Below, in pieces: positions 50,169 through 60,638 of a stretch of DNA of 64,000 bases (the first letter of the stretch is position 1; every line of letters begins with the position of its first letter). A program made the translations under genes and the position numbers. The notes under the pieces were generated by a model, which ran no database searches, was not told where the DNA came from, and saw only the letters and a list, made by a program, of their open reading frames with translations. This DNA comes from a virus. Where the stretch lies: positions 18,545-82,544 of IMG/VR virus record IMGVR_UViG_3300010430_000017; one strand, given 5' to 3'.

Positions 50169-50288
50169 AAAGATTTTCCTGTCTCTCTTTCATTTAATAC
50201 CTTATTATATAAGAGAGCGGGGAAAGTGAACGAAGGAGGAGGTCGTTACGATTCGATCTAAGATCTATCCCCACCAGAAAAATCTTTT
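50169..50288. other. Multi-branched structured element upstream of TerL
   Basis: About 120 bases can fold as one unit. An outer 10-bp stem (AAAAGATTTT/AAAATCTTTT) encloses a CTCTCTT/AAGAGAG hairpin and a GGGA/TCCC stem. Inside that stem are an AACGA/TCGTT hairpin, whose loop contains AGGAGG, and a GATC/GATC mini-hairpin. It could be a packaging-site DNA element, a structured RNA or an mRNA control element. Confidence 0.45.
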
Positions 50289-50294
50289 GTTAGG

Positions 50295-50396
50295 ATGGTG
50301 GGAATTTTTGGTATTTCTGATAGAGCTTTAAGGGCCTTGTGCAGAAGTGAGTATGAATATATCAAAGAATATAAGTCTTTCAGGATAGTGAGGTGA
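50295..50396 (+). CDS. Possible 33-residue leader ORF before TerL
   Basis: ATG 50295 to TGA 50396 encodes MVGIFGISDRALRALCRSEY followed by 13 more residues. No good SD lies before it. It ends three bases before the TerL ATG and could be a remnant or a leader peptide. Confidence 0.25.
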   Translation: MVGIFGISDRALRALCRSEYEYIKEYKSFRIVR

Positions 50397-50398
50397 AT

Positions 50399-51919
50399 AT
50401 GTCATTAGGTCCTTGTTCGGAACGACAAGCACAAATTTTAAAGAATAATTCTGACGTGCTTCTAATGGGTGGTGGAGCCGGATCTGGCAAGAGTTATCTA
50501 CTACACCTTATAGCAGCTAATTATTTGGACTGACCTAACTACCGGGCAACTTTCATTCGTAGAACTACTCCTCAGTTAATGAAGCCTGGTAACTTGTGGG
50601 ACACAGGTAAAAAAGTATTTAGTCAGCTTGGTATGCATAATGGTGTAAACTACAATCCAAAATGGAAACAAGGTGATCAAAAGTTAGTTGTGTGGGGGCA
50701 TGGACCGGTAATAGAATACTCACATTGTCAACATATAAAGGATCTCGACAACTATCAAGGTTCACAGATGACAACTTTTTTGGTAGATGAGGGGACCCAG
50801 CTTGAATGGGAAATGATCTCATATTTGTTTTCAAGAATGAGATCAGACTCTAAGTATAAATCAAGAATGGTCATAAGTTGTAACCCGTCATACGATCACA
50901 TGCTCAGAAAAATGGTGGACTTTTATGTAGATGACGAGGGGTTTCCTATAGAAGATAAGTTAGGTATTGAAAGGTATTTCTATGTAATAAATGATGTCCC
51001 GGTTTTTGGTGACACATCAGAGGAACTTATAGAAAGATATCCTCTAATGGCTGAAGGGTTGGATGGGGACATTATCCCTCCAATGAGCTTTTCATTTATT
51101 GCCTCAAACGTATATCAAAACCCTATTTTATTGAAAAACAACCCTCGCTACCTAAGTGCATTGAAAGGTCTTGGTGAACTTGAAAGAAAAGTACTTCTTG
51201 ATGGATGCTGGAATGTCAAACCGGAAAGTGCTTCCTATTTCAAAAGAGAATGGTTACAGAAATGGGATAAGATCCCTCTTGGTAGTAAGTTCCGTGGATG
51301 GGACAAGGCGAATACCCCTGTTTCAAAAGACTCTGCTAATAAATATCCCGACTTTACTGCATGTACCGGGATGGTTAAGACAGCAGAAGGTGATATAGTG
51401 ATTATAGGGGACCATCATGAAGATAACAAAGATAAAGATGATGGGGTGTACGGTAGGTTTAGAGAGCTTCCAGGAAGAAGGAATCAGATTATGTTAAGAC
51501 AGGCACAATGGGACGGACCTGATTGTACCGTGGTCTTAGCGCAAGATCCGAACGGTAAGTTCGAGTTTGAGGAAAGTGTTAAATTTTTTAATAGTCACGG
51601 GTTCATAGTTAAAAAAGATCCAGCAATTGTATCCTCAAGTAAATTAACTAAATATAGTGCATTTAGTTCTGCTTGTGAAAACGGTACTGTGGGGATTGTA
51701 GAAAGTTCTTTCCACCCAGACACTCTTGAAGATTTTTATAAATGTCATGAAAGATTCACAGGTTTACGGAGTAGTCGTACTTACAAAGACGATATTCCTG
51801 ATAGCACAGCATCAACCTTTGCTGTAGCATCCCAATCACAACACATCCCAATAGTTTGTCGTAACCAGATACAATCAGATACAATATCAAGAAACATTAT
51901 AGAAAAGAGAAATCAATAA
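50399..51919 (+). CDS. Terminase large subunit, interrupted by in-frame TGA at codon 45
   Basis: This is the packaging ATPase-nuclease. From ATG 50399 (GAGGTGAAT upstream) the frame reads to the Walker A GGGAGSGKS (about residues 24-32), then LAANYLD-type text and TGA at 50531-50533. The same frame continues as PNYRATFIRRT with no frame change. Later motifs are TTFLVDEGTQLEWE (Walker B region), the nuclease-type RGWDKANTP near 300, and VVLAQDPNGKFEFEES. The part after the first internal ATG (50579) lacks Walker A and has no SD. Explanations are a nonsense mutation, an assembly error, or read-through; the next base is C, the leakiest context for UGA. The gene identity is firm. Confidence 0.85.
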
Positions 51920-60212: not shown

Positions 60213-60638
60213 ATGAGTAACAACCTTAAGCAATTCTTAGCTGATCTTGAAAAAGAGACTGAGCAAGTAAAGACTGAGCTAAATCAGGAGATTAAAGGCA
60301 CTGCTGAAGCTGTACAAGGCTCTTTACTCTCTCCTAAAGGTCTTGGTGGTACTCCTAAACAAACAGGGAACTTAAGGGCTAATTGGATAGTTACAGTGGA
60401 CTCAATGTACTCCGGTCTGGTTGGTAGTAAAGAAAATGTGGATACATCGACAAGAGATAGTAACTGGAGTAGTTTCCTGAATCTACAAGATTTGTATAGC
60501 AAGTCCAACATCTATTGGAATAATAACGTCGAATACGGTGAAGCAGTTAACTATGGAACTCCAACTATAGCTGCTCAGAATTTTAGAGAAACTGCAATTC
60601 AAGCTGGTGAAGTATGGATCAGGGGGAATAAGAAATGA
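60213..60638 (+). CDS. HK97 gp10-like neck/tail-completion protein
   Basis: This encodes 141 residues. LLSPKGLGGTPKQTGNLRANW, a beta middle and YGEAVNYGTP...ETAIQAGEVW follow the gp10 or tail-completion pattern (S-P-x-x-TGxLRxxW ... VxYxxxxExGT). It ends in TGA overlapping the next ATG (ATGA), a firm example of TGA as stop in the late region. Confidence 0.75.
   Translation: MSNNLKQFLADLEKETEQVKTELNQEIKGTAEAVQGSLLSPKGLGGTPKQTGNLRANWIVTVDSMYSGLVGSKENVDTSTRDSNWSSFLNLQDLYSKSNIYWNNNVEYGEAVNYGTPTIAAQNFRETAIQAGEVWIRGNKK

What the first reader, a model, noticed from the sequence alone, without database searches (positions are those of the whole stretch)
50399..51919. Terminase large subunit carries an in-frame TGA between Walker A and the rest of the protein
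From ATG 50399 the frame encodes Walker A (GGGAGSGKS), then TGA at 50531-50533, then continues in the same frame as PNYRATFIRRT through the whole ATPase-nuclease. An essential packaging gene is not expected to be dead in a working phage. TGA is a normal stop here, since the SSB-like gene ends DDDIPF-TGA and 60213-60638 ends at an ATGA overlap. General recoding is therefore unlikely. The base after the stop is C, the context most prone to UGA read-through in bacteria.
Basis: partly seen in the sequence, partly recalled or inferred. Interest (0 to 1): 0.75.

Follow-up and report, generated by a model that had tools for sequence, protein, structure and literature searches.

The report
UGA stop inside phage packaging gene
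A seemingly complete uncultured-phage genome carries a real UGA stop codon early in its only DNA-packaging motor gene, at a loop position where its nearest relatives have cysteine, so the phage probably relies on ribosomes occasionally reading through the stop, although a recent disabling mutation cannot be excluded.

Summary
The TGA at 50531-50533 is real. It is codon 45 of terL, 13 codons after Walker A, in an otherwise continuous 506-codon frame. A second IMG/VR contig (16 differences in 36.8 kb) has the same TGA, so a private assembly error is unlikely. terL is the only recognisable gene split by one stop in this 82.5-kb record, whose ends share a 123-bp repeat. TGA is a normal stop elsewhere. 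No tRNA, SECIS-like hairpin, Rfam RNA, second TerL or intron at the site was found. All sampled relatives have a sense codon there: mostly Asp, but Cys in the nearest relative and three others, in the same Asp-Cys-Pro-Asn motif. The position is a loop that tolerates D, Y, H, L, C, I and V. Best reading: low-level UGA read-through by near-cognate host tRNA (Trp or Cys) supplies the little TerL needed. Main rival: a recent null allele; this TerL evolves faster than its sibling's, which keeps the rival alive. In passing: sibling phages have terL out of frame by 5 nt exactly at the Walker A intron site.

The parts
50390..50396 (+). Shine-Dalgarno-like GAGGTGA in front of the terL ATG
   Evidence: sequence
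50399..50533 (+). N-terminal part of terL, 44 codons with Walker A (GGGAGSGKS), ending in the in-frame TGA
50531..50533 (+). in-frame TGA, codon 45; Cys in nearest relatives, mostly Asp in the family; loop between the P-loop helix and the next strand in the model
50534..51919 (+). rest of terL: ATPase core after Walker A and RNase H-like nuclease, 461 codons and TAA
50540..50591 (+). predicted mRNA hairpin 6 nt after the TGA; not unusual for this genome, probably incidental

Best explanation
terL is one gene with one in-frame UGA that replaced a sense codon, most likely Cys, at a variable loop position between the P-loop helix and the next strand. Most ribosomes stop there and release a useless 44-residue peptide. 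A minority insert Trp or Cys through near-cognate host tRNA and make full-length TerL. Few motor subunits are needed per particle, so a few per cent read-through, or more in a UGA-leaky host, would be enough. Shown: the stop is real, shared by two strains, unique in the genome, and at a substitution-tolerant position. Inferred: that read-through happens, how much, and that it suffices.
For: Same TGA in two assemblies differing at 16 sites. No other lesion in terL; all residues invariant in a 21-member alignment are kept. Only recognisable gene so broken in a probably complete genome. Codon 45 varies widely in the family and is Cys in the nearest relatives; it lies in a loop of a confident model. 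Published: TGA is the leakiest E. coli stop, read mainly as Trp and then Cys, up to 14% in one reported context (PMC11126739); 6% for a B. subtilis TGA reporter (PMC7918605). Good ribosome-binding site.
Against: No protein or read evidence. TerL here departs from 8 of 59 near-invariant columns, the most of 46 sequences, and has 84 unique changes against 47 in the sibling, which fits relaxed constraint. The UGA-C context is not notably leaky in E. coli. Downstream hairpin not significant. The two strains are close, so persistence is shown only over a short time.
Confidence: 0.48

Rival explanations
1. Recent null allele. The TGA is a nonsense mutation that kills TerL; the genomes persist for a while through co-infection with TerL-positive phages, or because DNA of a non-productive population was sequenced.
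For: Accelerated evolution of this TerL and 8 departures from near-invariant columns. All other sampled family members have a sense codon. PMC7918605 finds most in-frame stops short-lived and in excess in phage-type genes.
Against: Same TGA in two strains; catalytic residues kept, no frameshift and no second stop; no other broken gene recognised in the genome.
Confidence: 0.3
2. The host itself reads UGA well, through a suppressor or a modified tRNA-Trp, so that UGA in this gene is nearly neutral.
For: Such tRNA-Trp variants with 4-bp anticodon stems occur in bacteria and raise UGA read-through in E. coli (PMC13092985).
Against: TGA is used as a stop in about 13 of 89 ORFs and lies inside no other recognised gene; relatives' contigs show no in-frame stops in the matched genes; no phage tRNA.
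Confidence: 0.06
3. Selenocysteine: UGA is decoded as Sec in place of the Cys of the relatives.
For: UGA aligns with Cys in the nearest relatives, the classical Sec/Cys signature.
Against: No bacterial-SECIS-like hairpin by a loose rule that 330 of 1419 background TGAs meet; the position is Asp in most of the family and not catalytic.
Confidence: 0.04
4. Two-piece TerL: the N-terminal peptide and a protein restarted downstream work together.
For: The first downstream ATG (50579) opens a 446-codon ORF.
Against: No Shine-Dalgarno-like sequence before 50579; a restart there loses the conserved PNYRATFIRRT strand; no relative is split this way.
Confidence: 0.05
5. Sequencing or assembly error, or a minority allele picked by the assembler.
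For: No reads could be examined; both sequences are metagenome consensus.
Against: Two assemblies that differ at 16 other sites agree on TGA; no homopolymer at the site.
Confidence: 0.07

Closest known systems
T4-type large terminase (Pfam Terminase_6N/6C), as in Vequintavirinae FV3 and CR8 and in Barbavirus
   Same: Motifs, fold, position before the portal gene, 41-44% identity
   Different: In-frame TGA at codon 45; faster evolution
Tolerated in-frame stop codons with read-through in bacterial genes (PMC7918605)
   Same: Single stop in an otherwise conserved frame, shared only by very close strains
   Different: Essential phage packaging gene; read-through and selection since the stop are not shown here
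Split terL genes with an intron or intein at Walker A (ICP1, Barba3S, phAPEC8)
   Same: Same gene and same N-terminal zone interrupted
   Different: No inserted sequence; the TGA lies 57 nt past the intron site, inside a continuous alignment
Stop-codon-recoded phages (crAss-like and others)
   Same: In-frame stop in a late gene
   Different: One codon in one gene; TGA is a normal stop elsewhere; no suppressor tRNA found

Membership tests
Large terminase (TerL) | Walker A, Walker B and RNase H-type nuclease residues in a terminase fold | tested here: met
Functional UGA read-through gene | Single in-frame UGA with homologous coding sequence in the same frame on both sides | tested here: met
Functional UGA read-through gene | Purifying selection (dN/dS < 1) after the stop arose | tested here: inconclusive
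   one synonymous SNP in terL between the two strains; accelerated branch
Functional UGA read-through gene | Full-length protein detected | not testable with these tools
   needs proteomics
Selenoprotein | Bacterial SECIS hairpin just downstream of UGA | tested here: not met
   own loose rule, no Rfam match near significance
Selenoprotein | Cys in homologues at the UGA position | tested here: met
   but Asp in most of the family
Phage with reassigned TGA | Many in-frame TGAs, TGA avoided as stop | tested here: not met
Intron- or intein-split terL | Inserted sequence at the break | tested here: not met

The most novel reading that the evidence does not exclude
The UGA is a selected dosage valve: read-through at codon 45 sets a low level of packaging motor, and related phages limit TerL in the same N-terminal zone by other breaks (the sibling frame break at Walker A, introns, inteins).
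Probability: 0.08. Interest if true: 0.75.

Novelty: new member of a known kind. Interest (0 to 1): 0.4.

Why it matters
If TerL is made by read-through, an essential low-copy virion motor is maintained on a leaky stop, and automatic 'pseudogene' or 'defective phage' calls from a single UGA in viral metagenomes can be wrong. If it is dead, a phage allele without its packaging motor recurs in two assemblies. Either outcome is directly testable with reads and proteomics.

Tried and rejected
Intron, intein or bypass at the TGA: rejected, the alignment has no extra sequence and Rfam finds no intron. General UGA reassignment: rejected. Phage suppressor tRNA: none found. SECIS: not met. Stimulatory hairpin: 24 of 1000 synonymous recodings and 9.4% of coding windows are as stable; PMC11126739 found no correlation of read-through with mRNA structure. 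Homing-endonuclease remnant upstream (50169-50398): no detectable homology. Restart at 50579: no Shine-Dalgarno-like sequence. Other copies of codon 45 by exact DNA pattern: only the same second contig in viral contigs, none in genome contigs; TerL peptides in genome contigs gave none. Selection test on the sibling strains: their terL sequences are identical, so no information. Paper search for the sample id: none. Solved-structure profile search: none at E 0.01.

Full report
Observation. From ATG 50399, preceded by a Shine-Dalgarno-like GAGGTGA, 44 codons including Walker A lead to TGA 50531-50533. The same frame then runs 461 codons to a TAA ending at 51919. Read through, the protein is a T4-type large terminase. 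It matches Terminase_6N over nearly the whole profile, is about 41-44% identical to TerL of Vequintavirinae and Barbavirus, and its AlphaFold2 model (mean pLDDT 89, pTM 0.59) finds the solved terminases of D6E, Sf6, T4 and HK97.

Is it an error? The window is part of an 82,544-bp virus record. Its two ends share a 123-bp direct repeat, so the genome is probably complete. A second contig, IMGVR_UViG_3300006467_000457, carries the same TGA and differs from the window at 16 sites over 36,833 bp. One of these lies in terL (51367) and is synonymous. An error confined to one assembly is therefore unlikely. Reads could not be examined, and I could not establish whether the two samples come from the same site.

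Is it general recoding? A scan of all frames for long open stretches broken by a single stop gave terL as the only recognisable gene so broken. A tiling of 89 ORFs ends in TAA 66, TGA 13 and TAG 10 times. ARAGORN finds no tRNA in the window, the rest of the record or the second contig. TGA is a stop here, and terL is an exception.

What stands at codon 45 in relatives? In 84 alignments of family members the position is Asp 58, Tyr 13, Leu 4, His 4, Cys 3, Ile 1, Val 1 and never a stop (two of the Leu are spurious alignments in the split loci L029 and L030). The Cys cases read YVD-C-PNW, YVD-C-PNF and, in ICP1, YVD-C-PNY, the same motif as YLD-*-PNY here. The nearest relatives found, L098 and L099 (major capsid protein about 82%, TerL 51% identical), have YID-C-PNYRATF. 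The ancestral residue was therefore probably Cys. In the model it lies in a confident loop (residues 41-48) between the P-loop helix and strand 49-54. Because the position tolerates many residues, Trp or Cys put in by near-cognate tRNA should not harm the protein; this is inference.

Is the gene still under selection? Every residue invariant in a 21-member alignment is kept, and there is no other stop or frameshift. But this TerL is unusual. It departs from 8 of 59 near-invariant columns, the most of 46 sequences, mostly by conservative changes. It has 84 unique changes against 47 in the sibling with outgroup L028 (chi2 10.45). Three of four further outgroups agree, while L017 gives 56 against 51. 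This is relaxed or altered selection. Drift long enough to produce it without any frameshift is hard to reconcile with a long-dead gene, so the gene is either functional or dead only recently.

Mechanism. In E. coli TGA is the leakiest stop, is read mainly as Trp and then Cys, and read-through up to 14% has been reported in one context (PMC11126739). PMC7918605 cites 6% for a B. subtilis TGA reporter and argues that many in-frame stops are tolerated but short-lived. Packaging motors need few TerL copies per capsid (established knowledge, not tested here). Low read-through could therefore support growth. That is my best explanation, at about 0.48. The hairpin 6 nt downstream (-15.3 kcal/mol) is only mildly more stable than synonymous recodings (24 of 1000), and 9.4% of coding windows in this genome are as stable.

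Rivals. A recent null allele is the main rival (0.30). Selenocysteine has the right Cys/UGA alignment but no SECIS-like hairpin, by a rule that 23% of background TGAs meet. A two-piece TerL lacks a start signal and would lose a core strand. Host-level suppression is possible, since 4-bp-anticodon-stem tRNA-Trp variants occur in bacteria (PMC13092985), but no other gene shows it.

Relation to split terL genes. In this family Walker A is a hot spot for interruption: ICP1 (splicing shown by RNA-seq and RT-PCR in PMC10448857), Barba3S, and phAPEC8 with an intein-like insert. A second hot spot lies near Walker B. The window has no insert at either. Its TGA lies 57 nt past the Walker A intron site and is a different kind of event. 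In the sibling contigs L098, L099 and L105, terL is out of frame by five bases, TGAGT, exactly at the intron site, with an intact HNH/NUMOD4 endonuclease gene just upstream. I could not explain this and record it as a separate lead.

Verdict. As it stands it is a candidate case of a known kind, a tolerated in-frame UGA, and not a demonstrated new mechanism.

Noticed in passing
L099:2234-2260 (also L098:202-228 and L105): In the nearest relatives, terL is out of frame by five bases (TGAGT, starting with an in-frame TGA) exactly at the Walker A group I intron insertion site, in three assemblies; a full HNH/NUMOD4 endonuclease gene (L099:1267-2139) lies just upstream. Intron-loss scar, cleavage-resistance change, frameshifting or collapsed assembly are all open.
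   Followed up: partly
L006:2015-2420, L010:532-890, L008:296-2371: terL of Barba3S and ICP1 is interrupted at Walker A by short intron-like sequences, and phAPEC8 by an intein-like insert, at about the same codons; the Barba3S exon with the first half of Walker A is annotated as a hypothetical protein.
   Followed up: partly
1-64000 plus L003 (whole record): The 82,544-bp record has a 123-bp direct repeat at its ends, so it is probably a complete circularly permuted or overlapping assembly of about 82.4 kb.
   Followed up: partly
L098 against L099, portal C-terminus (L098:3434-3650): A cluster of substitutions at the end of the portal gene in otherwise near-identical contigs, followed by sequence that does not match between them: looks like a recombination breakpoint.
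   Followed up: no
50169-50398: 230-bp stretch directly upstream of terL without a recognised gene or RNA family; includes a short open frame MVGIFGISDRALRALCRSEYEYIKEYKSFRIVR ending next to the terL start.
   Followed up: partly
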